Under the pieces are notes generated by a model. It ran no database searches and was not told the DNA's origin. It worked only from the letters and a program-made list of their open reading frames with translations. DNA of 64,000 nt, taken from contig NZ_CP142396.1 in assembly GCF_035934735.1 (NCBI RefSeq), forward strand, positions 1,488,001 through 1,552,000, in the 5' to 3' direction. This document shows positions 10,611-41,930 of the stretch, one piece after another (within the stretch, counting starts at the first letter, position 1; each line of letters opens with the position of its first letter). The position numbers and the translations under genes are program-made. The stretch comes from Sedimentibacter sp. MB31-C6 (GTDB lineage Bacteria; Bacillota; Clostridia; Tissierellales; Sedimentibacteraceae).

Positions 10611-10886
10611 ATGAAAGATTACATAGAACGGAGAGCCATGGAGATCGCGGATTATATTATAAGTACTCAATCCACTGTAAGGCAAACAGCTAAAAAATTC
10701 GGCGTTAGTAAAAGTACAGTGCATAAGGATGTTACGGAACGTCTTCCAAAATTGAACCCTCCTGCTGCAAGTGAAGTTAAAAAAGTTTTACTTAAAAACA
10801 AATCAGAAAGGCATATTAGGGGAGGTAAAGCTACACGCCTTAAATATAAAGAAGCACATGACCACGATAAAGTAAGTAATATGTAA
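10611..10886 (+). CDS. spoIIID: Sporulation transcriptional regulator SpoIIID
   Basis: 91 residues. MKDYIERRAMEIADYIIS and the helix-turn-helix VRQTAKKFGVSKSTVHKDVTERL identify SpoIIID, a mother-cell DNA-binding regulator acting with sigma-E. The tail GGKATRLKYKEAHDHDKVSNM is basic and polar. The gene looks intact. Its last 68 bases are repeated, alone, at several places 19-30 kb downstream, which points to use of this 3' end as an integration site. Confidence 0.95.
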   Translation: MKDYIERRAMEIADYIISTQSTVRQTAKKFGVSKSTVHKDVTERLPKLNPPAASEVKKVLLKNKSERHIRGGKATRLKYKEAHDHDKVSNM

Positions 10887-11012
10887 TTAACCATTTGAGG
10901 AAGGGCACTAACTGCAACATGTTAGTGCCTTTTTAGTTTTTGTATGTAAAGTGTTTACAGGGTAAAATATTAAACATCAATAGAGACAAAAAGGAGTGTT
11001 GGGACAAAAAAA
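10819..11012 (+). repeat. spoIIID tail copy A (in the intact gene) with downstream arm motif
   Basis: Bases 10819-10898 match copy D at 40446 base for base. They cover the last coding part of spoIIID, its stop codon and the start of the trailer. The terminator stem GGCACTAAC/GTTAGTGCC (10904-10929) with T5 follows and differs from the terminator in the other copies. GGGACAAAAAAA at 11001 lies 115 nt after the stop codon, close to the spacing (113-126 nt) of related motifs after copies B-E. I take this as the left junction of the array. Confidence 0.6.
10903..10935 (+). terminator. spoIIID terminator
   Basis: Perfect 9-bp stem GGCACTAAC/GTTAGTGCC, 8-nt loop, then TTTTT. Confidence 0.85.
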
Positions 11013-11154
11013 TTATCTTAACATATTCTCCTTGTTATATGCGGATAGGCCTTGAAAGCTACAAATACAATTCTGGATGGTATTTGTAAAAGTTTATTCG
11101 TCATAGCTGAAATAAATTTAAATTTGAGTCATTGCTGAAATAATTTTAAATTTA

Positions 11155-11183
11155 TTGACAGTACAAAAGTTCTAATATATAAT
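11155..11183 (+). promoter_or_regulatory. Sigma-A promoter of the cobalamin operon
   Basis: TTGACA (11155-11160), a 17-bp spacer and TATAAT (11178-11183): a consensus promoter directly ahead of the riboswitch. Transcription should begin near 11190. Confidence 0.85.
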
Positions 11184-11194
11184 TAAGGCAATTG

Positions 11195-11395
11195 AATATT
11201 GATATTTTGGTAACATTTGTTTTAATAGGGAAAACAGTAAAAGCTGTTACAGCCCCCGCTACTGTGAAAGGTGATAATGCTCCATACCACTGTGCTTTGC
11301 ATGGGAAGGTGAGTGTTAGATGATCCGAAAGTCAGGAGACCTGCCAGGATATGCTTGTTTGTAGATTTTCGGGAGGATTATCTAAAATATTTAAT
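11195..11395 (+). promoter_or_regulatory. Cobalamin (B12) riboswitch
   Basis: The aptamer core GCTGTTACAGCCCCCGCTAC (11253-11272) and the B12 box AGTCAGGAGACCTGCC (11330-11345) are diagnostic. The aptamer lies just after a consensus promoter and before a terminator hairpin at 11419-11447, so adenosylcobalamin binding should stop transcription of the downstream cbi genes. The ends given are approximate. Confidence 0.93.
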
Positions 11396-11418
11396 TGTGA
11401 TATATATCAGTATTGTTT

Positions 11419-11447
11419 AAACTTCCGTAAATTACGGAAGTTTTTTT
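11419..11447 (+). terminator. Riboswitch expression-platform terminator
   Basis: AACTTCCGTAA pairs with TTACGGAAGTT and is followed by seven T, between the B12 aptamer and cbiD. Probably the regulated terminator. Confidence 0.85.
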
Positions 11448-11513
11448 ATGCAAATAATTTGATGAATGAGACTGCGTATATGTATTTTTAATAGTAATAT
11501 TTTTGAGGTTAAT

Positions 11514-12599
11514 ATGGATAAATTTGTACTTAAAAATGGCAAGAGGTTAAAATGCGGCTTTACTACCGGTACCTGCGCGGCTGCTGCCGCAACAGCAGGT
11601 GCTCTGATGATATTTACCGGAAAGACTGTGGCGAATGTTTCAGTGAGGCTGCCAAGAGGTGAAATTCTTATAATTGATATTAAGGATCCGTCTTTTAATA
11701 CACATGGGGTAAGATGTTGTGTTCAGAAAGATAGTGGAGATGATCCAGACTCAACAGACGGGATTTTAATATATGCAGATGTTGAACTGGATGACTCTGG
11801 TGAAATACGCATAGATGGAGGTAAAGGCGTAGGACGTGTAACTCAAAATGGTTTAGATTGCCCTGTTGGTGGACCTGCAATAAATTCAGTGCCAAGAAAA
11901 ATGATAACTGAAAATGTTCATCGGATTTGTAATGAATATGGCTATAGGGGAGGAGTTAATATTATTATATCTGCTCCTGAAGGTGAAGAGGTCGCCAAAA
12001 AAACTTTCAATCCTCATTTGGGCATAGTGGGCGGAATATCAATAATTGGAACGACAGGAATAGTTGAGCCTATGAGCGAGAAAGCTTTAATTGACAGCTT
12101 GAAGGTTGAAATGCAGGTAATAAAGGAAAGAGGCTTTAATACACTATTGGCTTTTCCTGGCAATTATGCAGAAAGTTTTATTGACAGCACTCTTGGGATA
12201 CGCGGGGAAAACAGTCTTAAGTATAGCAATTATCTAGGAGAAGTTCTGGATTTTGCCCTGGAGCTTAATTACAAGGAAATATTAGTAGTGGGTCATATAG
12301 GCAAGATGATTAAGGTGGCCGGAGGCATGATGAATACCCATTCTCATACCGGGGATTTCAGAATGGAAATGTTCGCTTGCTATGCTGGGTTGTATGGCGC
12401 AGGAAGCCATGTTATTGAAGAAATATTATCCAGCGTAACTACAGAACAGGTTTTGGAAATATTAATAAGGGAGGATTTATTAAAAAAGGTAATACAAAAA
12501 ATAAGTGAAAGAGCACTCTTTTATATTAACAAAAGAGTGGATAATAGAATTATAACTAAATTAATTATTTATTCAAATAATCATGGAATCTTAAATTAA
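11514..12599 (+). CDS. cbiD: Cobalt-precorrin-5B C1-methyltransferase CbiD
   Basis: 361 residues from ATG 11514. This start gives the family N-terminus MDKFVLKNGKRLKCGFTTGT and has TGAGGT upstream; an in-frame ATG at 11466 would add 16 unrelated residues. CbiD methylates C1 of the corrin ring in the anaerobic pathway using SAM. TTGTCAAAAATAGAL and GGISIIGTTGIVEPMSE are conserved CbiD segments. It is the first gene after the riboswitch. The region has a few GC-richer codons at its start compared with neighbours. Confidence 0.93.
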   Translation: MDKFVLKNGKRLKCGFTTGTCAAAAATAGALMIFTGKTVANVSVRLPRGEILIIDIKDPSFNTHGVRCCVQKDSGDDPDSTDGILIYADVELDDSGEIRIDGGKGVGRVTQNGLDCPVGGPAINSVPRKMITENVHRICNEYGYRGGVNIIISAPEGEEVAKKTFNPHLGIVGGISIIGTTGIVEPMSEKALIDSLKVEMQVIKERGFNTLLAFPGNYAESFIDSTLGIRGENSLKYSNYLGEVLDFALELNYKEILVVGHIGKMIKVAGGMMNTHSHTGDFRMEMFACYAGLYGAGSHVIEEILSSVTTEQVLEILIREDLLKKVIQKISERALFYINKRVDNRIITKLIIYSNNHGILN

Positions 12600-12614
12600 T
12601 GTAAGGAGACTAAA

Positions 12615-13370
12615 ATGGTACATTTTGTAGGTGCAGGACCTGGTGCAACAGATTTAATCACAATGAGGGGACATAAACTTTTATGTGACGCAGATGTAAT
12701 AATATATGCCGGTTCATTGGTCAATAAAGAGCATTTAAACTATGCAAAAGAAGAAGCGGAAATTCACAATAGCGCTCATATGACTTTGGAGGAAGTTGTA
12801 GATGTTATAAAGAAGGCTGAGAAAGAAAATAAAAATACAGTTAGACTTCATACTGGCGATTCAAGTATTTACGGTGCCATAAGAGAGCAAATAGATATTT
12901 TAAAGTCACTGAATATTCAGTATGATGTGGTTCCTGGTGTAAGTTCATTTTGTGGAGCAGCAGCATCATTGAATGCGGAATATACATTGCCTAATGTGAG
13001 CCAATCAGTGATTATCACACGAATGGAGGGAAGAACTCCTGTTCCTGAAAGAGAAAGCATACGTTCATTTGCAGCACATAAGTCAACTATGGTTTTATTT
13101 TTAAGTTCTGGATTAACAGAAGAATTATCAAATGAATTAATTGCAGGTGGATATGAAAAAGATACGCCTGTTGCTGTTGTTTATAAAGCAACATGGCCTG
13201 ATGAGAAAATATTCAGATGCACTATTGAAACTTTGCATCAAACTATGAAGGATAACAATATAACTAAGACAGCATTAATTTTGGTTGGCAATTTTCTTGG
13301 AAATGATTATGAAAGAAGTGAATTATATAATCCAACATTTACACATGAGTTCAGAGAGGGGATTAAGTAA
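12615..13370 (+). CDS. cbiF: Cobalt-precorrin-4 C11-methyltransferase CbiF
   Basis: 251 residues. MVHFVGAGPGATDLITMRG is the SAM-binding start of the tetrapyrrole methylase fold, and ADVIIYAGSLVN is typical of CbiF/CobM. HTGDSSIYGA is the second conserved loop. The stop codon overlaps the ATG of cbiJ by one base. Acts on C11 in ring contraction chemistry. Confidence 0.92.
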   Translation: MVHFVGAGPGATDLITMRGHKLLCDADVIIYAGSLVNKEHLNYAKEEAEIHNSAHMTLEEVVDVIKKAEKENKNTVRLHTGDSSIYGAIREQIDILKSLNIQYDVVPGVSSFCGAAASLNAEYTLPNVSQSVIITRMEGRTPVPERESIRSFAAHKSTMVLFLSSGLTEELSNELIAGGYEKDTPVAVVYKATWPDEKIFRCTIETLHQTMKDNNITKTALILVGNFLGNDYERSELYNPTFTHEFREGIK

Positions 13371-14113
13371 TGCATGTGTGTATTTTTGGAGGAACAACAG
13401 AAGGGCGCTTGCTGGCTGAATTTTTGAATGATTACAATATAAAAACTGATTTATATATTGCTACGGAATACGGAGAACAATTTGTTAAAGATTTAAATAA
13501 TGTAACTGTTCATCAAGAAAGACTTAACAAGGAACATATGATTGAATTATTTCAAAAATATAATTTTGATTTTGTTGTTGATGCAACACATCCATTTGCA
13601 AAAATTGTTTCTCAGAATGCTATGGAATCGACAGAATGTTGCAATTTAAAATATTACAGGATTGTAAGAGAAACTGTAGAAAATGAACGTGCCATATACT
13701 ATGACACAGTAGAAGATATAGTAAATTACTTAAACAATGTTGAAGGGAACATATTGCTTACTACGGGGAGCAAGGATTTAGATAAATTCACAAAAGTTTC
13801 AAATTATGAGGAAAGGATTTTTATAAGGATTCTTCCCATGGAAAGCTCACTGAAAAGAGCCATAGAGCTTGGATATTCTAACAAAAATATCATCTGCATG
13901 CAGGGTACCTTCAGTGAAGAGCTTAATGTTGCAATGATAAATGCTGTTGATGCTAAATACCTTGTAACAAAGGAAAGTGCTGCATCAGGAGGCTTTGATG
14001 AAAAGGTAATGTCATGCATTAAAACAAATTCTAAATGCCTTGTATTGAAAAAACCTGAAGAAGAAGGTGTCACCTTTGTAGAGTTTAAACAAATAATAAG
14101 AGGGAATGTATGA
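13370..14113 (+). CDS. cbiJ: Cobalt-precorrin-6A reductase CbiJ
   Basis: 247 residues. The N-terminus CIFGGTTEGRLLAEFL is the nucleotide-binding signature of CbiJ/CobK, and DATHPFAKIVSQNAM is the conserved second block. KESAASGGFDEK near the C-terminus is also typical. It reduces the macrocycle with NAD(P)H. It overlaps cbiET by 4 bp. Confidence 0.92.
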   Translation: MHVCIFGGTTEGRLLAEFLNDYNIKTDLYIATEYGEQFVKDLNNVTVHQERLNKEHMIELFQKYNFDFVVDATHPFAKIVSQNAMESTECCNLKYYRIVRETVENERAIYYDTVEDIVNYLNNVEGNILLTTGSKDLDKFTKVSNYEERIFIRILPMESSLKRAIELGYSNKNIICMQGTFSEELNVAMINAVDAKYLVTKESAASGGFDEKVMSCIKTNSKCLVLKKPEEEGVTFVEFKQIIRGNV

Positions 14114-15330
14114 AGAAGGTTTATATTATAGGGTTGGGTATTGGCGATTTAGATTATATGCATAAAAAGGCATCAGATATATTAGAAGAATGTGATTGCT
14201 TAATAGGCGCGAAAAGAATGCTTAAGGATTTTCAAGGTTTAAATAAACCAATTTACGAAAGCTCAAATGCAGAAGATATATGTGTATACATAAGTCAAGG
14301 AGAACATAATAATTATGGAGTCTTGGTTTCCGGAGATTCCGGTTTTTATAGTCTTTCAAAAAAAGTTACAGAGCTTTTGGAAAAAAAGGATGATGTAAAG
14401 GTTGAAAATATCCCAGCAATAAGTTCACTACAATACTTTGCCTCAAGACTAAATCTGCCTTGGGATGATATTAAATATGTTAGCGCTCATGGTAGAAATC
14501 TTAATATTATATCTAATGTTATTTTTAATAAAAAAACATTTATTCTTACTTCCAGTGATTTTAGTCCTAACATTATATGTGAAATTCTTACAAACAAAGG
14601 ATTGGGACACTTAAAGGTAAGCGTTGGAGAAAATTTGTCCTATGATAATGAAAGGATAATTGAGGATAGAGCAGAAGTAATTGCTGAAATGAAGTTTGAA
14701 GGTCTTTCTGTAATGATAGTGCACAATGATGATTTCATATCTATAGACGAAGCACATAACTCAATAAAGGACGAAGAATTTGTTACAGGAAAAGCACCTA
14801 TGACAAAAAGTGAAGTGAGAACTATAAGTATTGGTAAGCTTAAGTTAAAAAGTGATTATATAGTCTATGATATAGGTGCAGGAACAGGTTCTATATCAGT
14901 TGAAGCAGCTTTAAAGCTATATAATGGAACATTGTATGCTGTAGAAAAAGATGAGGAAGCAGCAGCTTTAATAGAGAAAAATATAAAGAAGTTTAAAACC
15001 TATAATATAGAAGTTATAAAAGGTACAGCGCCCGAGACAATAGAAAATATTCCGAGTCCCGATGCTTGCTTCATAGGAGGAAGTAACGGAAACATGGATA
15101 ACATAATAAATGCCGTATTAAAAAAGAATCCTCATGTAAATGTGGTTATTAATACGATTACCCTACAAAGCTTAAATGAAGCGATAAATTGTATGGAGAA
15201 GTATAAGTTTAAAGATGTTGAAATTGTAAATGTTTCAGTGGCTAAATCTAAAAAAATAGGCAACTATGACCTTATGATGGGACAAAATCCAATTTTTATA
15301 ATCAGTGGAAAAGGAAGTGGCCTGCTGTGA
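14110..15330 (+). CDS. cbiET: Fused CbiE-CbiT: precorrin-6Y C5,15-methyltransferase (decarboxylating)
   Basis: 406 residues, a natural two-domain fusion. Residues 1-200 are the CbiE tetrapyrrole methylase (KVYIIGLGIGDLDYMHKKA; SGDSGFYSL). Residues about 215-406 are CbiT, a class I SAM methyltransferase: PMTKSEVRTISIGKL and VYDIGAGTGSISVEAAL hold the SAM site. Together they methylate C5 and C15 and remove the C12 acetate carboxyl. Overlaps both neighbours by 4 bp. Confidence 0.93.
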   Translation: MKKVYIIGLGIGDLDYMHKKASDILEECDCLIGAKRMLKDFQGLNKPIYESSNAEDICVYISQGEHNNYGVLVSGDSGFYSLSKKVTELLEKKDDVKVENIPAISSLQYFASRLNLPWDDIKYVSAHGRNLNIISNVIFNKKTFILTSSDFSPNIICEILTNKGLGHLKVSVGENLSYDNERIIEDRAEVIAEMKFEGLSVMIVHNDDFISIDEAHNSIKDEEFVTGKAPMTKSEVRTISIGKLKLKSDYIVYDIGAGTGSISVEAALKLYNGTLYAVEKDEEAAALIEKNIKKFKTYNIEVIKGTAPETIENIPSPDACFIGGSNGNMDNIINAVLKKNPHVNVVINTITLQSLNEAINCMEKYKFKDVEIVNVSVAKSKKIGNYDLMMGQNPIFIISGKGSGLL

Positions 15331-16712
15331 AATCAAAAGCACCTAGAATAATGATTTCTGCGATTAGTAGCAACAGTGGAAAAACAACGATCACTGCAGC
15401 CATTTTAAAAGCGTTTCAGTTGAGGGGTAATAAGGTTGCTTCATTTAAAGCGGGACCTGATTATATTGATCCCATGTTCCATTCGAAAATTATTAAAATT
15501 CCATCAAGAAACCTGGATAAATTTATGATTGGTGAAAATAACTGCAGATACATAATGGGAAAAGGTAGCAGTAATATAGATGTTTCAGTTATAGAAGGAG
15601 TAATGGGTTATTATGATGGCATAGGCACCAATACTTCCTGCAGCTCCTATGAACTGTCGGCAGCTTTAAATTGTCCTGTGGTACTTGTTATTAATCCCAG
15701 TAGCATGGCTGCATCGGTGGGGGCAATAATCCATGGATTTAAAAGTTTTAGAGAGAATAGCAATATTAGAGGAGTAATTCTAAATAATGTTTCAGATGCA
15801 ATGTATGGATACTATAAAAAAATTATTGAATCCAACACAGATATTAAGGTTTATGGCTATATGCCAAATTTACCAAACTGTAGACTCGAAAGTAGGCATC
15901 TCGGACTTGTAACGGCAGAGGAAGTAGGTAATCTTGAGTCCATAATTGAGCAATTAGGGACACAGGCATTAAAAACCATTGACTTAGATTGTTTATATGA
16001 ATTGGCTGCAGGTTCAGCACCTATAGAATATACCGATCCAAACATAAGCTATATAGATAAAACAAAAATTGCTATTGCTAACGATAAAGCTTTTTGCTTT
16101 TATTATGAGGATAATCTGGACATACTTACACAGTTGGGTGCTGAAATAGTTAAATTCAGTCCTCTTAAAGATAAAGAGCTTCCTGAAGGAATAGGTGGCT
16201 TATATATTGGAGGAGGTTATCCGGAATTATATATAAAGGAGCTTTCAGAGAATATATCAATGCTTGATGATATAAAAGAAAAAGTTTCTAAGGGACTTCC
16301 TACGTTTGCGGAATGCGGTGGATATATGTATTTAATGGACAGCTTCACAGATAAGGAAGGAAATTTATACAATATGGTAGGAGCAGTAGAAGGAAATAGC
16401 TATATGACAGATTCTCTTAGAAGATTCGGATACATTACATTAACAAGTCAAAATAATAATTTGATGTGCAACACAGGAGAGTCAATTAACGGTCACGAAT
16501 TTCACTATTCTGATAGCAATAATACAGGAGAAGCTTTTTTAGCAGTAAAGCCAGAATCAGTTAGAAGCTGGAAGGCAGTTATAGCCGATGAAACAAAGTT
16601 TTTGGGATATCCCCACATAAACTTTATGGGAAATATTAATTTTGCAGAGAATTTTGTAAAAAGATCAGTTGAGTATTCTAAATTAACTGTCAGGGGAGTA
16701 AATAAAATATAA
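15327..16712 (+). CDS. cbiA: Cobyrinate a,c-diamide synthase CbiA
   Basis: 461 residues, normal for the family. The P-loop region SAISSNSGKTTITAAILKAF starts an ATP-dependent synthetase domain. KAGPDYIDPMFHSKI is a CbiA hallmark. The C-terminal class I glutaminase-like domain holds GGLYIGGGYPELY and the nucleophile in FAECGGYMYL. It amidates the a and c side chains with glutamine. The other amidase of the pathway, cbiP, is not in the window. Confidence 0.93.
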   Translation: MKSKAPRIMISAISSNSGKTTITAAILKAFQLRGNKVASFKAGPDYIDPMFHSKIIKIPSRNLDKFMIGENNCRYIMGKGSSNIDVSVIEGVMGYYDGIGTNTSCSSYELSAALNCPVVLVINPSSMAASVGAIIHGFKSFRENSNIRGVILNNVSDAMYGYYKKIIESNTDIKVYGYMPNLPNCRLESRHLGLVTAEEVGNLESIIEQLGTQALKTIDLDCLYELAAGSAPIEYTDPNISYIDKTKIAIANDKAFCFYYEDNLDILTQLGAEIVKFSPLKDKELPEGIGGLYIGGGYPELYIKELSENISMLDDIKEKVSKGLPTFAECGGYMYLMDSFTDKEGNLYNMVGAVEGNSYMTDSLRRFGYITLTSQNNNLMCNTGESINGHEFHYSDSNNTGEAFLAVKPESVRSWKAVIADETKFLGYPHINFMGNINFAENFVKRSVEYSKLTVRGVNKI

Positions 16713-16723
16713 GAGGATTTAAA

Positions 16724-17755
16724 ATGAAAATTCACATATATGCATTTTCAGGCAATGGTGCAAGACTATGCGATAAATTAATTGAAAATTTAAATGACCA
16801 TGAAGTAAGTGCCTATGTTCCTGAAAGGTATTTAAGTTCTGCAAGTTTGGTTAAATTACGTGAAGAAAACTTATACAAGTCAGCAGAAAGGTCCTTTAAA
16901 AATGTAGATAGTATAATTTTTGTAGGTTCTGCAGGCATAGCAGTTAGAGCCATAGCACCTTTTGTAAAAAGTAAAAAGAATGACCCCGCTGTCATATGCA
17001 TGGACGAAAGAGGAATTAATGTTATATCTCTTTTAAGCGGGCACATTGGTGGCGCAAATAAGCTTACATTGAAAATTGCAGAGATTGTAGGGGGCAATCC
17101 TATTATTACTACGGCAACTGATGTAAACGGAAAGTTTGCAGTGGACGAATGGGCTCATAGCAGCAATCTTCACATAATGAGCTTAAAAAGAGCAAGAGAC
17201 ATTGCAGCAGATATATTGGACGATAAAAAAATAGGCTTTGAATCTGATTATAAGATAAATGGAAACTTGCCTTTAGAAATAGATTTGGCTGAAAGAGAAA
17301 TAGGAATATGCGTTAGCCTTGATTCTAACAAATCCCCTTTTAAAAACACATTAAACTTAATTCCTAGGATTGTATCCGTAGGAGTGGGCTGCAGAAAAGG
17401 GACAGATTTTAATGATATTTACACTGCTATAAAGGAAGTTTTAAACAGGCACAATATTTCACAGTTTGCTGTTAGTTCAATAAATTCCATTGACCTAAAA
17501 AAGGAAGAAGAAGGAATAAAAAGAATAGCAGAGATTTTCAAGGTCCCCTTTCATACATATTCAAAGGAAGAGCTTAGTGAAATACAGGGGCAGTTTTCAA
17601 GTTCTGACTTTGTAAAAAAAATTGCGGGAGTTGATACTGTATGTGAAAGGGCTGCAATTATGGGAAGTAAATCAAAAAAATTATTTATAAATAAGACTGT
17701 TGTTAATTCCGTTACGGTCGCAGCAGCTATAGATACATATGAAGTGGTATTTTAA
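16724..17755 (+). CDS. cbiG: Cobalt-precorrin-5A hydrolase CbiG
   Basis: 343 residues. Central and C-terminal signatures include FVGSAGIAVRAIAPFV, SLLSGHIGGAN, and VSVGVGCRKGT, all typical of CbiG. The enzyme opens the delta-lactone and releases acetaldehyde, a step confined to the anaerobic route. It begins 11 bp after cbiA with GAGGA upstream. Confidence 0.92.
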   Translation: MKIHIYAFSGNGARLCDKLIENLNDHEVSAYVPERYLSSASLVKLREENLYKSAERSFKNVDSIIFVGSAGIAVRAIAPFVKSKKNDPAVICMDERGINVISLLSGHIGGANKLTLKIAEIVGGNPIITTATDVNGKFAVDEWAHSSNLHIMSLKRARDIAADILDDKKIGFESDYKINGNLPLEIDLAEREIGICVSLDSNKSPFKNTLNLIPRIVSVGVGCRKGTDFNDIYTAIKEVLNRHNISQFAVSSINSIDLKKEEEGIKRIAEIFKVPFHTYSKEELSEIQGQFSSSDFVKKIAGVDTVCERAAIMGSKSKKLFINKTVVNSVTVAAAIDTYEVVF

Positions 17756-17762
17756 CAGGAGC

Positions 17763-17808
17763 GGACACGTGGAGATTAATGGACAGTAAGAACCGTCTCC
17801 ACTGGACA
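17763..17808. repeat. REP-like hairpin between cbiG and cbiC
   Basis: GTGGAGA (17769-17775) pairs with TCTCCAC (17796-17802); the loop contains GGACAGTAAGAACCGTC, which resembles intergenic repetitive hairpins I know from other Firmicute genomes. GGACA occurs on both sides. No T-run follows, so it is not a simple terminator. Confidence 0.4.
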
Positions 17809-17818
17809 AGGAGGAAAA

Positions 17819-18445: not shown

Positions 18446-18451
18446 AGGTAT

Positions 18452-34141: not shown

Positions 34142-34215
34142 AAAAAAGTATTTTTAAATAGATGTCGAAAATTGCATATTGCATATGAATCTTTATATGT
34201 AACATTATTATTTGC

Positions 34216-34377: not shown

Positions 34378-34431
34378 AAAAAAAGGAACTGAAGCAGTCG
34401 TTTTTAACAACTATTGCTACAGTCCTTTTAC
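34378..34431 (-). terminator. Terminator of the lipoprotein gene
   Basis: On the reverse strand AAAGGACTG pairs with CAGTTCCTTT across a long loop with its own pairing, then T-rich sequence follows. Confidence 0.55.
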
Positions 34432-34436
34432 AATCG

Positions 34437-34877
34437 CTATTGTAACAGAAGGTCTTCCAAAATAAGTTCTCCCCACATTCCCTTATATTTTCCATCCTCC
34501 AGTTCGGGAATCTTTTCGTTGATAAATGCCTTCATTTTTTCGATTGCAGCGTCCCGTGTATAAAGTTCCTGAAGTCCATTACAATACTTTTTAACTTCTC
34601 TAAGACCCATTTGTGGAGTATCATGTGCAAATGCGTTGATAAATAAAGGATAATGTATCACTGTTTCAACTAATGCTTCGGTGGTCATATTAAGCAAAAT
34701 ATCATCTGGTATTTGGCATGCTTTTATCTTCTCCTGTAAGGATTTAAGATCTGACCATTCCGTCATTCCAGGCACGATAGGGTATTGATATGGTTCAGTA
34801 ATTGTATATGTGTCTCCTATTTGGCAAGCTACCATAAAAATTAAAATGCAAAATATTACAATAATAATACGTTTCAT
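34437..34877 (-). CDS. Uncharacterised lipoprotein
   Basis: 146 residues on the reverse strand. The signal peptide ends at the lipobox FMVAC, so the protein should be lipid-anchored outside the cell. The mature part is mostly helical (LREVKKYCNGLQELYTRDAAI) and unfamiliar. Its GC content is visibly higher than neighbouring cassette genes. It is the only intact gene between tail copies B and C. Confidence 0.6.
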   Translation of the reverse strand: MKRIIIVIFCILIFMVACQIGDTYTITEPYQYPIVPGMTEWSDLKSLQEKIKACQIPDDILLNMTTEALVETVIHYPLFINAFAHDTPQMGLREVKKYCNGLQELYTRDAAIEKMKAFINEKIPELEDGKYKGMWGELILEDLLLQ

Positions 34878-35315
34878 ATAGCATCCCTTTCACAATCATC
34901 ATGAACTGTGCAAATTTATTATATTACACAAAATATCAAGATTCTATACCTTGTGTGATGGTGTAAAAAGCTTATTTAGATTATTGATTATTTTATCTAT
35001 AATAAATGTATACTGAATGAGTTTTAATGTTATCTCCACATCACAAACTTGATTCAGTATCTTAAACATTTATTATTCAACATTTTATATGATATAATTA
35101 TAACATATATGTAGTTTTATGTAAAGACTAACCATTTTATTGCTTCCTCATAATTTGTTTTTAAAAATGATCGCAACAGTATAACATCTTTTAAATTTTT
35201 TAAAAGTTAGAAACAATTAAAGCATAAAAGTAAAATTCATTTTAAAAAGTTGTTGTCTTTATGGTTTGTATGTCGTAACATTATTACGAACAATAAGGAC
35301 AAAAGGAGCAATATT
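34878..35315. other. AT-rich non-coding stretch
   Basis: No credible gene. TACTGAAT (35009) and ATTCAGTA (35049) form a weak inverted repeat. The left part should hold the lipoprotein promoter; the right part leads to the AbiE remnant. Confidence 0.5.
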
Positions 35316-35668
35316 ATGTCTGATAAAGATATGGTTTTCAAATTAATGAAAAATAATAATGGAATTTTAGAGTCAAAACAAGCTGTAAAAGCGGGAATTG
35401 ATAATAAAGTATTACAAAGATTATATAAGGCAGGCGATATAGGATTTTTTATAATGTATATGTTCTTTTAACATTGAGAAAAGATGATTTGATTAAAGCT
35501 GAAATTAAAGATGCCGTTTGGAAAAAGGCTGAAGAAAGAAACAGCACCATTTATATAAAAGATTATCAAAAATATTTAGACGATATAAGCAGTAGCAAAG
35601 ATATACGGTCAATTTGGAATGCTTATAAGAGTGAAAAAATACTTTTGGTTGCATTAAATATACAATAA
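35316..35668 (+). pseudogene. Remnant of an AbiE-type toxin-antitoxin pair
   Basis: ATG 35316 has AAAAGGAGC upstream. The first 43 residues (FKLMKNNNGILESKQAVKAG) resemble the N-terminal winged helix of AbiEi-type antitoxins, after which the frame ends at 35471. A second piece (35474-35668, YLDDISSSKDIRSIWNAYKSE) resembles the C-terminal helices of AbiEii-type nucleotidyltransferases. The middle of both genes is gone, so the system is dead. Family assignment rests on short similarity. Confidence 0.4.
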
Positions 35669-35693
35669 CGAGAATATTAATAAATGTGGTTTA

Positions 35694-35815
35694 GGACAAA
35701 TTTTGGCAAATTCAATTAAAAAACAGTATAAAATGGGGTTAATAGAAAGCAATAATTACTATGAAAATGTTGTAATTTACACATTGTATCAATACCATTA
35801 CAACCCCTAAGATTT
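35694..35815 (+). repeat. Cassette right-end element next to copy C
   Basis: GGACAAATTTT (35694) and GGCAAATTC (35705) lie in tandem. An imperfect inverted repeat follows (AATGGGGTTAATA; TATCAATACCATT). The second motif's C is 109 bp before the tail repeat, as at copies B and D. Confidence 0.6.
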
Positions 35816-36009
35816 GGGGAGGTAAAGCTACACGCCTTAAATATAAAGAAGCACATGACCACGATAAAGTAAGTAATATGTAATTAACCACTTGATGAAA
35901 GACACTGACTGTAATAGGTTGGTGTCTTTTGTATTTGTTAGAATCTTTAATAAAAAATGTAAAATATAGAGTATTGATATTATCAAAAAGGGTATTAGGA
36001 CATTTTTGT
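35816..36009 (+). repeat. spoIIID tail copy C with arm motif
   Basis: Identical to the native spoIIID tail from GGGGAGGTAAAGCTAC through TAATTAACCA, then a different hairpin terminator (to 35930). TTAGGACATTTTTG follows, with GGACA at 35998, 115 nt after the stop codon. The next ~220 bp without a gene equal the sequence after copy E and lead to sigma copy 2. Confidence 0.75.
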
Positions 36010-36233
36010 AACAAAAAATATTTAAATCTCATCATGTTAATAGTCCAATGTTACTTTAAATATCTTAGAAAATTTCGTAAGAGAATTTTATGCAGATAGT
36101 CTTATGCTATTAATTAAGTAATTAAGCTATTATTACAATAAATTTGATAATTACAGTTTAATTTAATGATATAATAGACGAAATAAATAACAGACAACAT
36201 TAAATTGCATATAGATAGCGGGGGTATAGTGTC

Positions 36234-36800
36234 TTGATAATTATATTTTTTGATGTAATAACAGATGAAGAAAAGGAATTAATCAATAAAATTTTTTCGA
36301 AAATGAATGTCAAATTGTATAATATTTCTTTTAACATTCTTAAGAATAAATTTGATGCAGAAGATGCTGTAATACAGACATTTTTAAATATTTCTGACAA
36401 TATAGAAAAAATTTCTAATTTACCATGTCCCCAAATAGAGCCTTACTGCGTTGTAATATTGAAGAATGAAAGTATAAATATTATGAGAAAGAGTAGGAAG
36501 GTTGAATTTGAGGAAAATATAGATTATTTGTACCAGAATTTACATCATGATGAAGTCTATAACCTTGAAGAAGAGTTTATGAAAACAGCAGATAAAGAAA
36601 TTTTATTATCATGCATTAACAGACTTTCAGACGATGAGAAAAATCTTATATACTTAAGATTTTTAAACGAATTGAGTTTCAAGCAAATTTCAGAGCTTTT
36701 AGATATTACTGAAGAGGCCGCTAAAAAACGGGGACAGCGTATTTTAAAAAAGTTGCGGGTGTATTATGAGGAGTGTGATAAGGTTGTCCAAAACGATTGA
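36234..36800 (+). CDS. ECF-like sigma factor, copy 2
   Basis: 188 residues from TTG 36234 behind GCGGGGGTA. Same region 2 and region 4 features as copy 1. Nearly every base matches copy 1 up to about codon 140; changes then appear (LNELSFKQISELL; RVYYEECDKVVQND). It overlaps the downstream membrane gene by 35 bp. Which of the two copies controls which secreted-protein gene cannot be told. Confidence 0.8.
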   Translation: MIIIFFDVITDEEKELINKIFSKMNVKLYNISFNILKNKFDAEDAVIQTFLNISDNIEKISNLPCPQIEPYCVVILKNESINIMRKSRKVEFEENIDYLYQNLHHDEVYNLEEEFMKTADKEILLSCINRLSDDEKNLIYLRFLNELSFKQISELLDITEEAAKKRGQRILKKLRVYYEECDKVVQND

Positions 36801-37749
36801 CATTATTATGAAAGATGTGTGTGAATTATCTTTTCAGGATGAATTGCAAAAAATAAATGATTTAGACAATAATAATATTATTTACGAATCATTGACTAAG
36901 GAGGCGATTAATAGATTAGCAAAGAAAATAGAACTATTACCATTTGAATACCGCAATCTTCTTTTTTTTCGATATTGCTTTAACAGCACTCCTTTTGAAA
37001 CAGATAAAATACTTAAAATAGAAAATTCCAAAAAGAAATTGCGTTATATTCAAAAAATGCTATCAAATTTTATGGGTGTCGAAAATTCATTGATAGATAA
37101 TACTTCTATGGAAGATGCCTGTCGATTAGCTTTGTCCGAAGATATGAAAGACTATGATAGTATCGAAATATTACAAAAACCTATTTATTCTAAGAACTTA
37201 ATAAAAAAGCTGAAGGAATATAATATCAAACAAAATAATAATACAGCATTCCTTGCAATAGCTAAAAAAGCAGCAATATTCATATTAATATTTATCATGA
37301 GCTTATCTACAGTCTTGGTATTTAATACAGAAGCACGCACAAAATTATTGAACTGGATTATTGAAAAGTTTCCTAAGTATAGTATATTTACTTCACAAAA
37401 TGATAATGGTCCAGTCGATTTAGCATCATTTAAAATTAAATATATTCCCTCAGATTTTGAATTATCAAATACTCACGAAATGCGTAACATGTTAATTTAT
37501 GAGTATTTGTCTGAAGATAATCAAATGCTGACTATAAAATTATCTATTTCTTCCAGTGAAAGAAAATCTTATTATAATACTGAAAATGCTATCATAGAGG
37601 AATTTATTTTTAAAGAATCTCAGGCTTATATGTGGCAAATTGATGAAATAACTTATTTAATATGGTATCAGGATAGTGTGGATTTCCATATTATCGGAAA
37701 CCTAAGTAAAGACGAAATTATAAAAATTGCAGAAAATATTTCAAAATAA
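36766..37749 (+). CDS. Membrane anti-sigma-like protein, copy 2
   Basis: 327 residues. The N-terminal 150 residues differ from copy 1 at only a few positions. The membrane helix (AAIFILIFIMSLSTVLVF) and the TEARTKLLNWIIEKFPKYS segment are kept. The outer domain is clearly diverged (IPSDFELSNTHEMRNMLIYEY), which suggests a different signal or partner is sensed. Role inferred as for copy 1. Confidence 0.65.
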   Translation: MRSVIRLSKTIDIIMKDVCELSFQDELQKINDLDNNNIIYESLTKEAINRLAKKIELLPFEYRNLLFFRYCFNSTPFETDKILKIENSKKKLRYIQKMLSNFMGVENSLIDNTSMEDACRLALSEDMKDYDSIEILQKPIYSKNLIKKLKEYNIKQNNNTAFLAIAKKAAIFILIFIMSLSTVLVFNTEARTKLLNWIIEKFPKYSIFTSQNDNGPVDLASFKIKYIPSDFELSNTHEMRNMLIYEYLSEDNQMLTIKLSISSSERKSYYNTENAIIEEFIFKESQAYMWQIDEITYLIWYQDSVDFHIIGNLSKDEIIKIAENISK

Positions 37750-37773
37750 TTTTAAAAAAATTGTCCCTTTTTT

Positions 37774-37820
37774 CCTCCTTGTTCGTTATATATGTAAGAA
37801 CCTAAAAACAACAAGGAGGA
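37774..37820 (+). promoter_or_regulatory. Inverted repeat that can hide the ribosome site, copy 2
   Basis: CCTCCTTGTT (37774-37783) is complementary to AACAAGGAGG (37810-37819), 9 nt before the start of the secreted protein. Kept from copy 1 although the loop differs. Confidence 0.6.
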
Positions 37821-37828
37821 TTTTTATT

Positions 37829-38269
37829 ATGAAACTAAAGAAAATTGGAGCAATAGCGTTGGTATCTGCTTTAGTACTTGGAAGCGCTGGAGTTAATAAT
37901 GTATATGGCATGGAACAACAAAAATACATATCTAAAAATACAAATAATCAAATAATCACTCCATTTTGGGTTGAAATTATCACAATTTTACCAGATATAT
38001 CGGCAAGTGGTAATACTCTTTATCCGGAAGTATATGTAAAAGCTAAAAGTACGTCATCTTCAATTACAGGTATAATGTATTTAGAAAAATACAGCTCCGG
38101 AAGCTGGGTAAATGTAACTTCATGGAGTTTAAAGGGAACAGGAAGCCTATCTGCATTTAAGAGCTATAGCGGAATTTCAAATAACATATATCGAACAAGA
38201 GTTGTAATAACTGTAAACGGAGAAACTGCCGAGGCCGTTTCAGGTACTTGTGAAATTTTAAGGTATTGA
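37829..38269 (+). CDS. Small secreted beta-rich protein, copy 2
   Basis: 146 residues from ATG 37829 (AAGGAGGA upstream; the longer frame from 37727 is rejected because it overlaps the preceding gene and lacks a signal peptide). Signal peptide IGAIALVSALVLGSAGVNNVYG, then a beta-rich domain (YLEKYSSGSWVNVTSWSLKG) ending TCEILRY as in copy 1. No known catalytic residues. Probably an extracytoplasmic product of the sigma module. Confidence 0.75.
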   Translation: MKLKKIGAIALVSALVLGSAGVNNVYGMEQQKYISKNTNNQIITPFWVEIITILPDISASGNTLYPEVYVKAKSTSSSITGIMYLEKYSSGSWVNVTSWSLKGTGSLSAFKSYSGISNNIYRTRVVITVNGETAEAVSGTCEILRY

Positions 38270-38368
38270 AAATTGGGTGTTTCAACATTACTTACCTAAA
38301 TATGGCGGATATTTTCCGTTGTACAGAGACTATATTAATAATTCTCAAAGTAAAGGGGGGAAATACAA

Positions 38369-38500
38369 ATGAAGAACATTAAAGAAAAAATACTTAAATT
38401 GGCTGTTAAACAAATTAAGAACACAGCATTCTCTGCAGTCGGCGTTACATCATATTGGTTAGCATTTCAACCTAAAGAACCAAGTAATTTAAAAAGGTAA
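38369..38500 (+). CDS. AgrD-like cyclic-lactone autoinducer prepeptide
   Basis: 43 residues, too short for usual ORF cut-offs. ATG 38369 follows AAAGGGGGG. An amphipathic leader (KEKILKLAVKQIKNTAF) is followed by a short core TSYWLA and the charged tail FQPKEPSNLKR, the three-part plan of AgrD precursors. The ring-forming residue would be Ser instead of the usual Cys, which would give a lactone. No AgrB peptidase gene is present nearby. A truncated frame (33 codons from 38271) ends over its start by ATGA, a sign of a lost upstream partner. Confidence 0.65.
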   Translation: MKNIKEKILKLAVKQIKNTAFSAVGVTSYWLAFQPKEPSNLKR

Positions 38501-38629
38501 TTTTAATTATTAGTTACTTTAAATTGTTCTTACAATATAATTATAATTTTTCTTTTACTTTTGCAATATAACTCCATTCAAATTGCAGCTAATTATTATA
38601 TAGTAAAAGAAAAAAAGGAGGGGGTTCCA

Positions 38630-38692
38630 TTGGGATTTATGTTTGTATTACAAAATTTACAAAATGCATATAATTTAAAAAATTATGAATAA
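38630..38692 (+). CDS. Putative 20-residue peptide
   Basis: TTG 38630 lies 5 nt after AGGAGGGGG, one of the strongest ribosome sites in the region, and opens a frame of 20 residues (MGFMFVLQNLQNAYNLKNYE). It sits between the AgrD-like gene and a secreted-protein gene. It may be a leader peptide, a signal peptide pheromone or chance. Confidence 0.35.
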   Translation: MGFMFVLQNLQNAYNLKNYE

Positions 38693-38706
38693 TGGGGAGG
38701 TAACAA

Positions 38707-39456
38707 ATGAAAAAAGGTTATATAGCATTAAGGAAACTATTTGCTTTGCTTATGATTTTCACATTATGCATTACATCTTCAGTATTTGCAAGCACACCAA
38801 ACAAATTACCTGATGATCATGAAGTTTTAAATGGGCAACTGTATATAGACGGAAATAAAGTTACTGAAATAATTCAGGTAGAATCAGGTAAAACGAAAAA
38901 AATTACTGTTGGACAATATGTTTCTAAGCTTGAACATGGTGAGATAATCTTTGATGATACTGTTACATTGGAAGATACGTCAGAAGATATGATAATTTCA
39001 CCTTTAGGCATTACTGATGACTGGTACAGATATGATGAATCTTCTTGGACCTCTGTTTTGAGAACTACTAAGAGAGAGAGAGTATCAACATATCTTAAAA
39101 ATGAAACTTCTAATCCAGCTGACCATTTATTAAGTACAACTTGCGAATCATCTCAATCATTTAGTTTTAATGTTGAAACTGGCGATAAACCTTATATTAA
39201 GGGAGGGGCAGGGTTTACTTGGGAATCTTCATCATCCAGAACTGAAGAAAAGAAATTAACTATTAGTCCAGGTATGTATGGATGGTGGGAATTTGCTCCT
39301 ATAGAAAACAAAACTAGTGGATATATGAAAACATTTAGTTGGTTAGGAGAACTTAAAGAAGAAAAATCTGTATATGCTTATTCACCGAAGGAAATAAATG
39401 GGTATCTTGATGGCGTGTATTATGCAGTGGAAAAAGCTACAATGCCTACAAATTAG
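38707..39456 (+). CDS. Secreted beta-rich protein
   Basis: 249 residues. Signal peptide LFALLMIFTLCITSSVFA. The central part alternates Ser/Thr with hydrophobic residues (TTCESSQSFSFNVETGDK; AGFTWESSSSRTEEKKLTI) and then reads SPGMYGWWEFAPIENKT, a pattern seen in secreted Firmicute proteins with long beta-hairpins. Resemblance to pore-forming beta proteins is only suggestive. Its GGGGAGG site lies next to the peptide gene above; a terminator follows. Confidence 0.6.
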   Translation: MKKGYIALRKLFALLMIFTLCITSSVFASTPNKLPDDHEVLNGQLYIDGNKVTEIIQVESGKTKKITVGQYVSKLEHGEIIFDDTVTLEDTSEDMIISPLGITDDWYRYDESSWTSVLRTTKRERVSTYLKNETSNPADHLLSTTCESSQSFSFNVETGDKPYIKGGAGFTWESSSSRTEEKKLTISPGMYGWWEFAPIENKTSGYMKTFSWLGELKEEKSVYAYSPKEINGYLDGVYYAVEKATMPTN

Positions 39457-39548
39457 TCAATTTTAAACTATAATTTTAAGATATGATATGCTAAAATAAG
39501 GTTATATACTCTATAATTATTTTGGTGAGAAAAATTGTTAAGTACGAC

Positions 39549-39580
39549 AAAGACGTGGATGTTACAATTTCACGTCTTTT
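39549..39580 (+). terminator. Intrinsic terminator
   Basis: AAAGACGTG pairs with CACGTCTTT across a 12-14-nt loop and ends in TTTT. Confidence 0.75.
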
Positions 39581-39668
39581 AAAAATATGTGCATCATAAT
39601 GTAAACAGTATTGTAGGCAAATAAAATATAAATATGATAAAATACTTTTAATACAGGAGGATTTGTTT

Positions 39669-40226
39669 ATGAAATTTAAATATCTTATTTTGGTTGGAGT
39701 TATTATCATAGTAGTATTTATTATATATATATACAGTAATAAAGAAGAATCCCAACTTACTAGATCTAGAGAGTATACTGATACAATTCAGCTTGGATTG
39801 CAGGGCGAAGGTTTGACTGAGGACCAAATATTGTTCATTGAACCGCTTAAAGATAATGAGGAACTTATTTTTTTTAGTAATTATAATGCCTTAGCTTTTG
39901 CCTGTTTATCTAAAATTAAAGATGAATGGTTGTGGAAAAGAACAGATCCTATGTATGACTTCCAATCTACAGATTCATCATCATATATGACTTCTATGGT
40001 TGAGATAACAACAATAAAAAATCATAATTATTATTTGTATTTAGGAGAGATATTTAATCCGAAAATTAATAAAATAACTCTACATAATGATACAATTAAT
40101 GCTAGGATAGTAAAAATAGACAACAATACATTCTGGTTTACAGTTATTGATATTGAATTAATAGGTGGTGATTATTTAAATATTGATACTAAAGCTTATG
40201 ATGATTTAGATAGTATTATAGAATAA
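39669..40226 (+). CDS. Membrane-anchored protein of unknown function
   Basis: 185 residues from ATG 39669 (AGGAGG 8 nt upstream; the TTG at 39663 is too close). One N-terminal membrane helix (YLILVGVIIIVVFIIYIY) and an extracytoplasmic domain of about 155 residues with mixed helix and strand. Not recognised. Last gene before tail copy D. Confidence 0.6.
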   Translation: MKFKYLILVGVIIIVVFIIYIYSNKEESQLTRSREYTDTIQLGLQGEGLTEDQILFIEPLKDNEELIFFSNYNALAFACLSKIKDEWLWKRTDPMYDFQSTDSSSYMTSMVEITTIKNHNYYLYLGEIFNPKINKITLHNDTINARIVKIDNNTFWFTVIDIELIGGDYLNIDTKAYDDLDSIIE

Positions 40227-40321
40227 TGTAATAAGTATATAATGCTGAATTTAATTCTTAGTTTCATCTATTGATTTAAGTATAAAAATCATAATATTAG
40301 TATAAATTTAAAAAATACTTC

Positions 40322-40445
40322 GGGCAAATTCTAGGCAAATTTTTATAAAAAACAATATAAAACGGTATTAATAAAAATGATTAGTAAACCTTAAAACCAT
40401 TGAAGTATACACATAGTATTAATACCGTTTTATCCCTTAAGATTC
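40322..40445 (+). repeat. Cassette right-end element next to copy D
   Basis: GGGCAAATTCTA and GGCAAATTTTT lie in tandem with 11-bp period. A perfect 15-bp inverted repeat follows (AAAACGGTATTAATA; TATTAATACCGTTTT) with a ~43-nt loop. The second motif's C is 110 bp before the tail repeat. This is the best preserved of the three end elements. Confidence 0.65.
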
Positions 40446-40637
40446 GGGGAGGTAAAGCTACACGCCTTAAATATAAAGAAGCACATGACCACGATAAAGT
40501 AAGTAATATGTAATTAACCATTTGATGAGAGACACTGACTGTAATAGGTTGGTGTCTTTTGTATCTTTTGTTTCTGTGGCGATGGTTTGAAACAAAAAAT
40601 GCAAAAGTAAACAAAAAGAGTTCCCGGGCAAATTTTT
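40446..40637 (+). repeat. spoIIID tail copy D with arm motif
   Basis: 80 bp identical to the native gene end (10819-10898), then the hairpin terminator of copies B, C and E (to 40560). CCGGGCAAATTTTTT (GGGCA at 40626) lies 113 nt after the stop codon. The region up to 40875 otherwise has no gene and contains the palindrome at 40702. Confidence 0.75.
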
Positions 40638-40701
40638 TAAAGAATAGTTTAAAGAATCTTATTAGAACGTATTGTACCCATGTTAATGGATATATGTGAT
40701 G

Positions 40702-40745
40702 TGACCCCAATATGTTAGAATTCTAGGTCTAACATATTGGGGTCA
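40702..40745. repeat. IS-end-like perfect palindrome
   Basis: TGACCCCAATATGTTAGA and its exact complement are separated by 8 bp. The TGACCCC tips in inward orientation look like the terminal repeats of an IS3-type element whose interior is lost. No T-run, and no clear target duplication. Confidence 0.45.
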
Positions 40746-40875
40746 GTTCATTTTAAAGGGTTTCTATTTTTGAATTATGTATTTTTGGTAAAAGTATATT
40801 CTTAGTAAACTAAACTTAACAATTTAAAAATGCAACAGCAATACTTTTACTTTTTAAGTTTTATACTAAATATCT

Positions 40876-41850
40876 CTATGGTTCTACATATCCTATAGAA
40901 GTATCTATACCAACTGTGCTTGTTTCACTATCCCAAGTTATTCCTATATTAAAAATTTTAGCAACATCTCTTAATTTAAAATAATTGTTATTATTAATAT
41001 TATAAGCGCTTAATTGAACTTCGATGCTATCTTTATATATTTTCGATGTGTTTAAATTACCTGTTTTTGATTTACCATTGCCTTTACTCAGTTCACCACC
41101 TACTGTTGTATAGGCTGTATTTGAAATTAGATTAATTGCATTTTTATTATCCCACTTCACTTCGAATTGCTTTTCACTATTGTTTACTACACTTGCTAAA
41201 TCTCTAAGTTTAAAATAATTATTATTATCTATATTATAAGCATCAAAAGATAATACCTTGCCATTTACTATAACCTTAGAATTTGTTGGTTCTGCAGTCA
41301 CTGTTGTTGGCTCTGCAGGTACATCAACAGGCGTTGTATTTTTAGTTCCTGATTTATATTTGATTAATTTTAATGTGTAATACTTGTAAAAATCATCTAT
41401 GTCTCTTTCCATACCGTTAGGTACATATTCATATAAAATATAACCATATACTTCTGGACTATCTTGTGTGTGATCATTACCTTTTGCTTTTACATTAAAT
41501 TTTTCACTTGCTTTAAATGTACCAGAATATAAAATATCCTTAGATGTTGACTTTGTTTCATATGTTTCTATAAACGCAGTGCCTTGCCACGTTTCAGCAA
41601 ATTCTAATTTGTCATCAATCTTGATTAAAAAACCTGTGGAATTTATTCCAGCAGTCTCATCATTGCCATAACAATATTCTATTATTGTATTTTCATCCCA
41701 AACTTCAACTTCATATTCTCCGTCGTTAAATGGTGTTCCTCTGTATCCGCCAAATACTACATTCTCTTTTTGTATTTTTACTACATTTTTACTTTCAGAA
41801 AATCCTCTAAATTCATCTACTCCAATGGAATCACTAAAGAAGATAAAGTA
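40876..41850 (-). pseudogene. Secreted protein with copper-amine-oxidase-N-like repeats, 5'-truncated
   Basis: The reverse frame is open for 325 codons from 41850 but has no start codon until an internal Met at 41412, so the 5' end is lost. The upstream part (GGYRGTPFNDGEYEVEVWDE; FAETWQGTAFIETYET) is unfamiliar. The C-terminal ~120 residues contain two stalk-type repeats with NYFKLRDLASVVN and NYFKLRDVAKIFN, typical of the copper amine oxidase N-terminal-like domain of secreted clostridial proteins. The break lies just before tail remnant F. Confidence 0.65.
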
Positions 41851-41882
41851 TTATATAAATTAATTAAAGATAAAAATATATA

Positions 41883-41930
41883 TTAACACTTGATGAAAGA
41901 CACTGACTGAAATATAGTAGTGTCCTTTTT
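41883..41930 (+). repeat. Degenerate spoIIID terminator remnant F
   Basis: TTAACACTTGATGAAAGACA and the following CTGACTG...TAGTGTCCTTTTT match the trailer and terminator of copies B-D, but the coding tail is missing. No arm motif is seen at the expected distance to the right, where the Mn catalase gene lies. It may mark the right edge of the array. Confidence 0.45.

What the first reader, a model, noticed from the sequence alone, without database searches (positions are those of the whole stretch)
10819..41930. Dispersed copies of the spoIIID 3' end mark a tandem array of integrated cassettes
Seen: the last ~68 coding bases of spoIIID, with stop codon and a hairpin terminator, recur at 33937, 35816 and 40446 in the same orientation, with partial copies at 30221 and 41883. 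Copies C and D match the native gene base for base over 70-80 bp. Between them lie unrelated, cargo-like genes. Known: tyrosine recombinases often integrate at gene 3' ends and rebuild them, and cis-mobilisable elements accrete in tandem (for example at fda in streptococci). Inferred: spoIIID is the target of a family of elements without their own recombinase. I know of no described system of this kind at spoIIID.
Basis: partly seen in the sequence, partly recalled or inferred. Interest (0 to 1): 0.9.

Follow-up and report, generated by a model that had tools for sequence, protein, structure and literature searches.

The report
Mobile island array at spoIIID 3' end
Behind a sporulation regulator gene, a spore-former's chromosome has collected a row of small inserted DNA islands, each bounded by a copy of that gene's last bases, and related species carry a full-size island there with the enzyme that most likely does the inserting.

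Summary
The last 68 bases of spoIIID (stop included) plus terminator recur at 33937, 35816 and 40446, with terminator halves at 30220 and about 41875, all on +; a whole-genome search found no other convincing copy. Nine full copies from five genomes begin to match spoIIID at the same place, GGGGAGG. Most are preceded by one of two conserved ends with paired GGACATTTTT or GGGCAAATTT repeats, resembling integrase arm sites. In three relatives a tyrosine integrase gene lies directly behind spoIIID (two intact, one fragment); in one a second tail follows 18 kb on. Of two close relatives, one has a 4.75 kb unit at the tail that the other lacks. Best reading: a tandem array of integrase-less relatives of spoIIID-targeting integrase islands. 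Four literature searches listed no report of spoIIID as a target. The mechanism is of a known kind (Dehalococcoides ssrA islands, CIME tandems); target and lineage appear new.

The parts
10611..10886 (+). spoIIID, intact; target gene
   Evidence: Pfam SpoIIID 1.5e-40
10819..10942 (+). native tail: core GGGGAGG..., 68 coding bases with stop, plus terminator
10995..11020 (+). possible truncated type I left-end remnant (TTGGGACAAAAAAATTATC), resembling by eye the sequence between spoIIID and int in G024
   Evidence: side by side; aligned identity to type I left ends only 45-49%, below the shuffle maximum of 51%, so tentative
11148..28568 (+). second cobalamin biosynthesis cluster with cobalamin riboswitch (11191-11362); lies between the native tail and the array
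28741..30219 (-). IS1634-family transposase gene (ORF call 28741-30327); its element appears to abut and truncate the next tail
   Evidence: NCBIfam IS1634 4.7e-113; no coding half of a tail found on its other side; exact IS ends not determined
30220..30280 (+). terminator half of tail copy A
30281..33936 (+). unit E2 (right end type I; left repeat type I by eye): ECF-like sigma factor, DUF4367 protein, secreted-looking protein, further ORFs; no integrase found
33937..34060 (+). tail copy B, preceded by type I right end with paired GGACA repeats at about 33810
34061..35815 (.). unit E3 (type II ends): one 145 aa ORF on - and short + frames; no integrase found
35816..35939 (+). tail copy C, preceded by type II right end
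35940..40445 (+). unit E4 (left repeat type I by eye, right end type II): sigma factor, DUF4367 protein, secreted-looking proteins; no integrase found
40446..40569 (+). tail copy D, preceded by type II right end (GGGCAAATTCTAGGCAAAT at 40322)
40570..41874 (-). unit E5: type II left repeat by eye, one 177 aa ORF (weak Cu_amine_oxidN1 match); right end lost
41875..41931 (+). terminator half of the most distal tail

Best explanation
The spoIIID 3' end is the attachment site of a family of integrative islands seen so far only in one genus. A lambda-type tyrosine integrase recombines a circular island near the left edge of the shared block (GGGGAGG). The island brings its own copy of the last 22 codons, stop codon and terminator, so spoIIID stays intact and the old tail is pushed downstream as the distal boundary. 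Repeated insertion at the same site builds a tandem array. In this genome the members E2-E5 have lost, or never had, an integrase. They keep attachment ends of two specificities and are at present immobile, or movable only by an integrase supplied from elsewhere. Shown: the repeated tails, the shared boundary, two end classes, integrase islands and unoccupied sites in relatives. Inferred: the recombination step, its cut points, past excision, and supply in trans.
For: The copies found lie in one orientation behind spoIIID. In 9 of 9 full copies used, from five genomes, the match to native genes starts at the same place; further upstream only scattered A/T positions agree. Right ends fall into two groups across species: 57-77% identity among five type I, 66-84% among four type II, 49-61% between the groups; shuffled controls mean 35%, maximum 51%. 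The type I repeat pattern, at up to one mismatch, hits 7 places in 25 genomes and all 7 adjoin a spoIIID tail or decayed tail; the backwards control pattern hit 5 places. PF00589 genes lie convergent right behind spoIIID in G012 and G020 (intact, 80% identical) and G024 (fragment); in G020 a tail copy follows 18 kb on. G003 against G009 (aligned pieces 91-97% identical): G003 has an extra 4.75 kb unit with tail and left end repeated on both sides. A Ham1-like gene, 41 kb behind spoIIID here, lies about 6-14 kb behind it in G001, G002, G004 and G016 (in G016 the contig starts inside the tail).
Against: No integrase of the spoIIID type was found in this genome; the nearest (C1:1877091) is 37% identical and elsewhere. 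No integrase was found with type II ends at spoIIID. The left ends after the native tail, C and D do not align above shuffle level with either class and are typed only by a short repeat seen by eye. The between-class identity of right ends (49-61%) overlaps the lower edge of type I, and the G009 copy's upstream aligns with neither class (17-49%) although its last bases look like type II. E4 has mixed ends; 6 of 7 matching units is not significant alone. The 19 kb cobalamin stretch has only a doubtful left-end remnant. Some tails in relatives sit on other contigs. G003 and G009 also differ by a 3.6 kb and a 10 kb stretch further on. Excision and circles were not observed.
Confidence: 0.87

Rival explanations
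1. The integrase-less units are not decay products but dedicated mini-elements (satellite-like cassettes) that routinely use integrases of other islands in trans and spread between species.
For: Of 9 tail-to-tail intervals (window 5, G003 1, G024 2, G020 1), 7 have no PF00589 hit, 1 has a fragment and 1 an intact gene. A similar module (sigma factor, DUF4367 protein, small secreted-looking protein) occurs in E2 and E4 and in the integrase-less unit of G003. Copy B's tail is closest to G018/G024 (5 differences in 58 bases), not to its own host's gene.
Against: No helper seen in G000 or G003 today. E5 and the 30220 tail are damaged, which fits decay as well. Transfer of the module between species was not tested by a tree.
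Confidence: 0.3
2. The tails are ordinary segmental duplications made by homologous recombination or insertion sequences, without site-specific recombination.
For: An IS1634-type element abuts the 30220 tail, and E2 and E4 share a stretch that is 94-100% identical over most of its first 1.2 kb.
Against: Full copies start at the same place; conserved ends and an integrase are linked to them in several species; G003 has a unit at the tail that G009 lacks.
Confidence: 0.04
3. The tail repeats are kept as transcription terminators or binding sites and their spread is not by mobility.
For: Five of six fold as strong terminators; the two half copies keep only the terminator.
Against: Full copies also keep the 22 codons in frame and carry conserved sequence upstream of the coding part; terminators alone would not need these.
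Confidence: 0.04

Closest known systems
Dehalococcoides ssrA genomic islands (PMC3146451; passages read)
   Same: Many tandem islands behind one single-copy gene, each bounded by a repeat of its 3' end; 16 with an integration module beside attL and 15 without one that the authors say might be cis-mobilizable elements.
   Different: Serine recombinase (DsiB) and a 20 bp repeat of an RNA gene; here a tyrosine integrase, a block of about 110-125 bp and a protein gene for a sporulation regulator.
ICESt1 / CIME accretion at fda in streptococci (fda is recalled; CIME and accretion as described in PMC5704250, passages read)
   Same: Elements that lost integration and transfer genes but keep attL and attR stand in tandem; [quoted passage not shown]
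   Different: Other target and lineage; no conjugation family found among the ORFs scanned in the window; two end classes in one array.
Sporulation-gene intervening elements: skin in sigK, gin in gerE (start of abstract of PMC5595907 in a search listing; one skin passage of PMC6957869)
   Same: Target is a sporulation gene.
   Different: Those split the gene and are excised in sporulation; spoIIID here stays intact.
Tycheposons (recalled; only a search listing seen)
   Same: Recalled: integrated elements with repeated gene 3' tails and varied cargo.
   Different: Recalled as using tRNA genes in marine plankton; not compared by sequence here.

Membership tests
Tyrosine-integrase genomic island at a gene 3' end | Direct repeats of the target 3' end at both borders, same orientation | tested here: met
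   E2's left and E5's right border are half tails
Tyrosine-integrase genomic island at a gene 3' end | Integrase gene beside one border | tested here: inconclusive
   Met in G020, G012 (intact) and G024 (fragment), not in the window's own units
Tyrosine-integrase genomic island at a gene 3' end | Arm-type repeats flanking the core | tested here: inconclusive
   Paired repeats conserved at right ends and at some left ends; other left ends rest on a single repeat seen by eye; binding not tested
Tyrosine-integrase genomic island at a gene 3' end | Occupied and unoccupied sites in relatives | tested here: met
   G003 against G009; synteny in G001 and G004, with G016 across a contig break
CIME (cis-mobilizable element) tandem | No integration or transfer genes but both attachment sites kept | tested here: inconclusive
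   Met for E3. E2 keeps only half of its left tail, E4's ends are mixed, E5 has lost its right end. No integrase, relaxase or T4SS family among the ORFs scanned; short ORFs were not scanned
CIME (cis-mobilizable element) tandem | Moved in cis by an adjacent functional element | not testable with these tools
   No adjacent functional element seen in this genome; needs excision assays
Integron cassette array | Integron integrase (IntI) next to the array | tested here: not met
   No PF00589 hit in the window; the three distinct full-length own-genome recombinases score 53-96 bits against an integron-integrase cut-off of 265; the short fragment at C1:2859761 was not scanned
Sporulation-gene intervening element (skin type) | Element interrupts the reading frame | tested here: not met
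   spoIIID is a full 91 aa frame

The most novel reading that the evidence does not exclude
spoIIID anchors an open-ended cassette array: short, integrase-free DNA units with two alternative attachment codes, several carrying a sigma-factor/DUF4367/secreted-protein module, are loaded and shuffled by integrases supplied by larger, defence-carrying islands that use the same gene end. A protein-coding developmental gene would then serve as a genus-wide cargo dock, also hosting a second cobalamin operon.
Probability: 0.25. Interest if true: 0.7.

Novelty: new member of a known kind. Interest (0 to 1): 0.5.

Why it matters
It points to a new integration hot spot, the 3' end of a conserved sporulation regulator, in a little-studied lineage. 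Units there carry genes matching anti-phage models in two relatives (CBASS-type cyclase with NucC in G020; QatC, QatD and a PD-T4-1-like protein in G024), and a second cobalamin cluster lies behind spoIIID here. It gives a readable record of repeated insertion, decay and end exchange, and a simple rule for finding cargo: read what lies between spoIIID tails.

Tried and rejected
Viral contigs and phage/plasmid records were searched for the G012 integrase: 26% identity in the two viral-contig loci, 26-31% in the 12 phage and 12 plasmid rows listed, and under 60% in all matching records (2,492 phage, 2,674 plasmid), so no close phage or plasmid relative was found there. Of 249 order-wide genomes, 5 have a match at E 1e-60 or better, all of the same genus and this genome's 37% match among them. 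A peptide-pattern scan of named genomes found two loci, the G012 and G020 contigs themselves. A spoIIID protein search over the 249 (112 with a match) showed tail-only pieces in G000, G003, G009, G020 and G024 only, but the C-terminus diverges outside the genus, so this says little about other families. The own-genome integrase at C1:1877091 was considered as a helper: GGGCAAATCTGGGGCAAA lies beside it, resembling type II repeats, but it is 37% identical and sits elsewhere; it remains only a possibility. A broken AbiE-like gene in E3 was suspected by eye; Pfam gave no support. That the cobalamin cluster is native at spoIIID is disfavoured, not excluded: in the one relative on a single contig (G024) it lies some 645 kb away, and in the other drafts on other contigs than spoIIID; this genome has a second, 71% identical CbiD. 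The CbiD tree used 13 of the 19 matches; six (G005, G006, G007, G009, G010, G013) had not been fetched. Matching of end types (6 of 7 units) has a chance of about 0.11 by my hand count and is not used as proof. The copy comparison left out the half tails, the decayed G003 C10 copy and the tails at contig starts in G010, G012 and G016.
Full report
Observation. spoIIID is window 10611-10886. Its last 68 bases (stop included) and terminator recur at 33937 (B), 35816 (C) and 40446 (D); terminator halves lie at 30220 and about 41875, all on the + strand. C and D equal the native gene for 75 and 80 bases; B differs at 8 of 68 coding bases yet still encodes the tail. In the own genome (3.02 Mb, 2 contigs, 99.57% complete) a search with the native tail found the three full copies and the 30220 half; the next match has E 0.13. 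It did not list the 41.9 kb half, so equally decayed halves elsewhere cannot be excluded. The copied block contains a folding terminator, weaker in the 41.9 kb half.

Anatomy. Nine full copies from five genomes were compared with 19 native genes: from GGGGAGG onward the match is near complete, and further upstream only scattered A/T positions agree. Upstream of the copies lie two conserved right ends. Type I (TAGGACATTTTTGGGACATTTTTTATTG...) precedes B, G024 c1, the G020 copies and a decayed copy on G003 C10. Type II (TCGGGCAAATTCTGGGCAAATTTTT...) precedes D, G003 copy and G024 c2, and a variant (GGACAAATTTTGGCAAATT) precedes C. Identities are 57-77% within type I, 66-84% within type II and 49-61% between them; shuffled controls mean 35%, maximum 51%. 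The G009 C37 copy aligns with neither class (17-49%). Among left ends, B, G003 (both), G024 c1 and G009 form one group (71-100%) and G024, G020 C143 and G012 natives another (68-70%). The left ends after the native tail, C and D of the window do not align above shuffle level with either and are typed only by a short repeat seen by eye. With that limit, seven units have both ends: E2 I/I, E3 II/II, E4 I/II, G003 II/II, G024 first I/I, G024 second II/II, G020 I/I; six of seven match.

Repeat patterns. The type I pattern gave 7 hits in 25 genomes at up to one mismatch, all 7 beside spoIIID tails (one of them decayed); the backwards control gave 5 hits. The type II pattern gave 13 hits against 0 for its control: 4 beside spoIIID tails (G000, G003, G014, G024), one inside the G020 island just beyond the start of its integrase gene, one inside G024's first unit, the rest elsewhere, some near other integrases.

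Integrase. PF00589 was found in all 25 genus genomes. Three of those genes lie directly behind spoIIID and convergent with it: G012 C394 (390 aa open frame), G020 C143 (396 aa) and G024 (220 aa fragment). G020's is 80% and G024's fragment 71% identical to G012's. G020 C143 begins inside spoIIID and ends in the next tail 18 kb on, so it holds a whole unit. Among its ORFs are the integrase, a HEPN/ApeA-like protein, an FRG-domain protein, an Mrr-type nuclease, a CBASS-type cyclase with NucC, a small serine recombinase and a small HTH_17 protein (below the Pfam cut-off; a possible excision factor by position). G024's first unit holds QatC, QatD and a protein whose first half matches PD-T4-1. This genome's PF00589 hits are an XerC-like and an XerD-like protein (best models, below their cut-offs; the second present on both contigs), a 384 aa integrase 37% identical to the spoIIID type at another place, and a short fragment.

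Occupied and unoccupied sites. In the genus-wide DNA search 9 of 25 genomes gave two or more matches, 13 gave one and 3 none. Some second matches are ambiguous because contigs break inside the tail (G010, G016). Of the 13, G002 and G018 carry decayed remnants, G014 a type II left repeat, and the G017, G019 and G021 contigs end at or just behind the tail. G003 and G009 are 91-97% identical in the aligned pieces; G003 carries an additional 4.75 kb type II unit at the tail (sigma factor by similarity, DUF4367 protein, secreted-looking proteins, no integrase hit), with tail plus left end on both sides; G003 also has about 3.6 kb and G009 about 10 kb more further on. A Ham1-like gene (window 51865) and neighbours lie 41 kb behind spoIIID here but about 6-14 kb behind it in G001, G002, G004 and G016; in G016 the contig starts inside the tail, so its link to spoIIID is assumed.

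The cobalamin cluster. Between the native tail and the array lie a cobalamin riboswitch (11191-11362) and cobalamin genes to 28.57 kb. The genome has a second CbiD at C1:344856. The CbiD tree groups the window's copy with G020, G002, G008, G024, G018 and G022 (98/96), while an M23 peptidase next to spoIIID groups this genome with G001, G021 and G020 C79 (99/96), the same side as the second CbiD (86/84 with G001). This suggests that the cluster behind spoIIID was acquired. Against it, G020 stands next to the window in both trees, so shared descent with G020 is possible; G020 also has two spoIIID genes and may be a mixture. Whether the cluster came as cargo of a spoIIID island is not shown; only a short, doubtful left-end remnant (about 10995-11020) hints at it.

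Mechanism. The evidence fits a lambda-type integrase acting near the left edge of the block and rebuilding the gene with the island's own tail. Host-like variants at the very start of the block in the G020 C125 copy suggest a crossover at or left of GGGGAGG (inference). Array growth then follows by repeated insertion. E2 and E4 share about 2.4 kb from their left end (94-100% identical in most 200-base steps of the first 1.2 kb, ungapped; falling to 58% and rising to 85%), then differ, and have different right ends, so units also seem to recombine with each other.

Comparison. Tandem islands with integrase-less members are described for ssrA in Dehalococcoides (PMC3146451, passages) and reviewed for ICE/IME/CIME tandems (PMC5704250, passages; no occurrence of spoIIID there). 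Literature searches joining spoIIID with integrative and attB (2 papers), integration site and integrase (3), genomic island (4), and prophage or insertion site (12 listed of 1,263) showed by title and abstract start no report of spoIIID as a target; one passage mentioning it was read. Only open-licence papers are held, so this is not proof of absence.

Organism. The records of the two intact integrase carriers are titled as a Clostridiales bacterium (UBA10612) and a Tissierellia bacterium (STF2_113). I suspect a Sedimentibacter-like genus, which was not tested.

Noticed in passing
window 11148-28568: Second cobalamin cluster with riboswitch, possibly acquired horizontally; the genome's other CbiD is at C1:344856 and is 71% identical.
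   Followed up: partly
L069 (G020 C143) and L068 (G024): Units behind spoIIID in two relatives carry genes matching anti-phage models: CBASS-type cyclase with NucC, HEPN/ApeA-like, FRG, QatC/QatD, PD-T4-1-like.
   Followed up: partly
window 30576-32619 and 36234-38266; L066 14808-16530: Repeated module of ECF-like sigma factor, DUF4367 protein and small secreted-looking protein in integrase-less units of two species; sigma-70-like proteins also lie downstream of spoIIID in G009 and G013.
   Followed up: partly
L077 15900-16030 and L055 about 8974-9035: G001's spoIIID has an unrelated terminator, while a terminator like the genus form lies on another contig, as if relocated.
   Followed up: no
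L064 (G000 C1 1-4327) and L065 (G000 C2 3058-7384): The own genome's small contig C2 repeats the start of C1 (five proteins at 100% identity), probably an assembly overlap.
   Followed up: no
L072 6250-16430: G009 has a 10 kb insertion beginning with a type II-like left end, distal to an 800 aa gene, relative to G003.
   Followed up: partly
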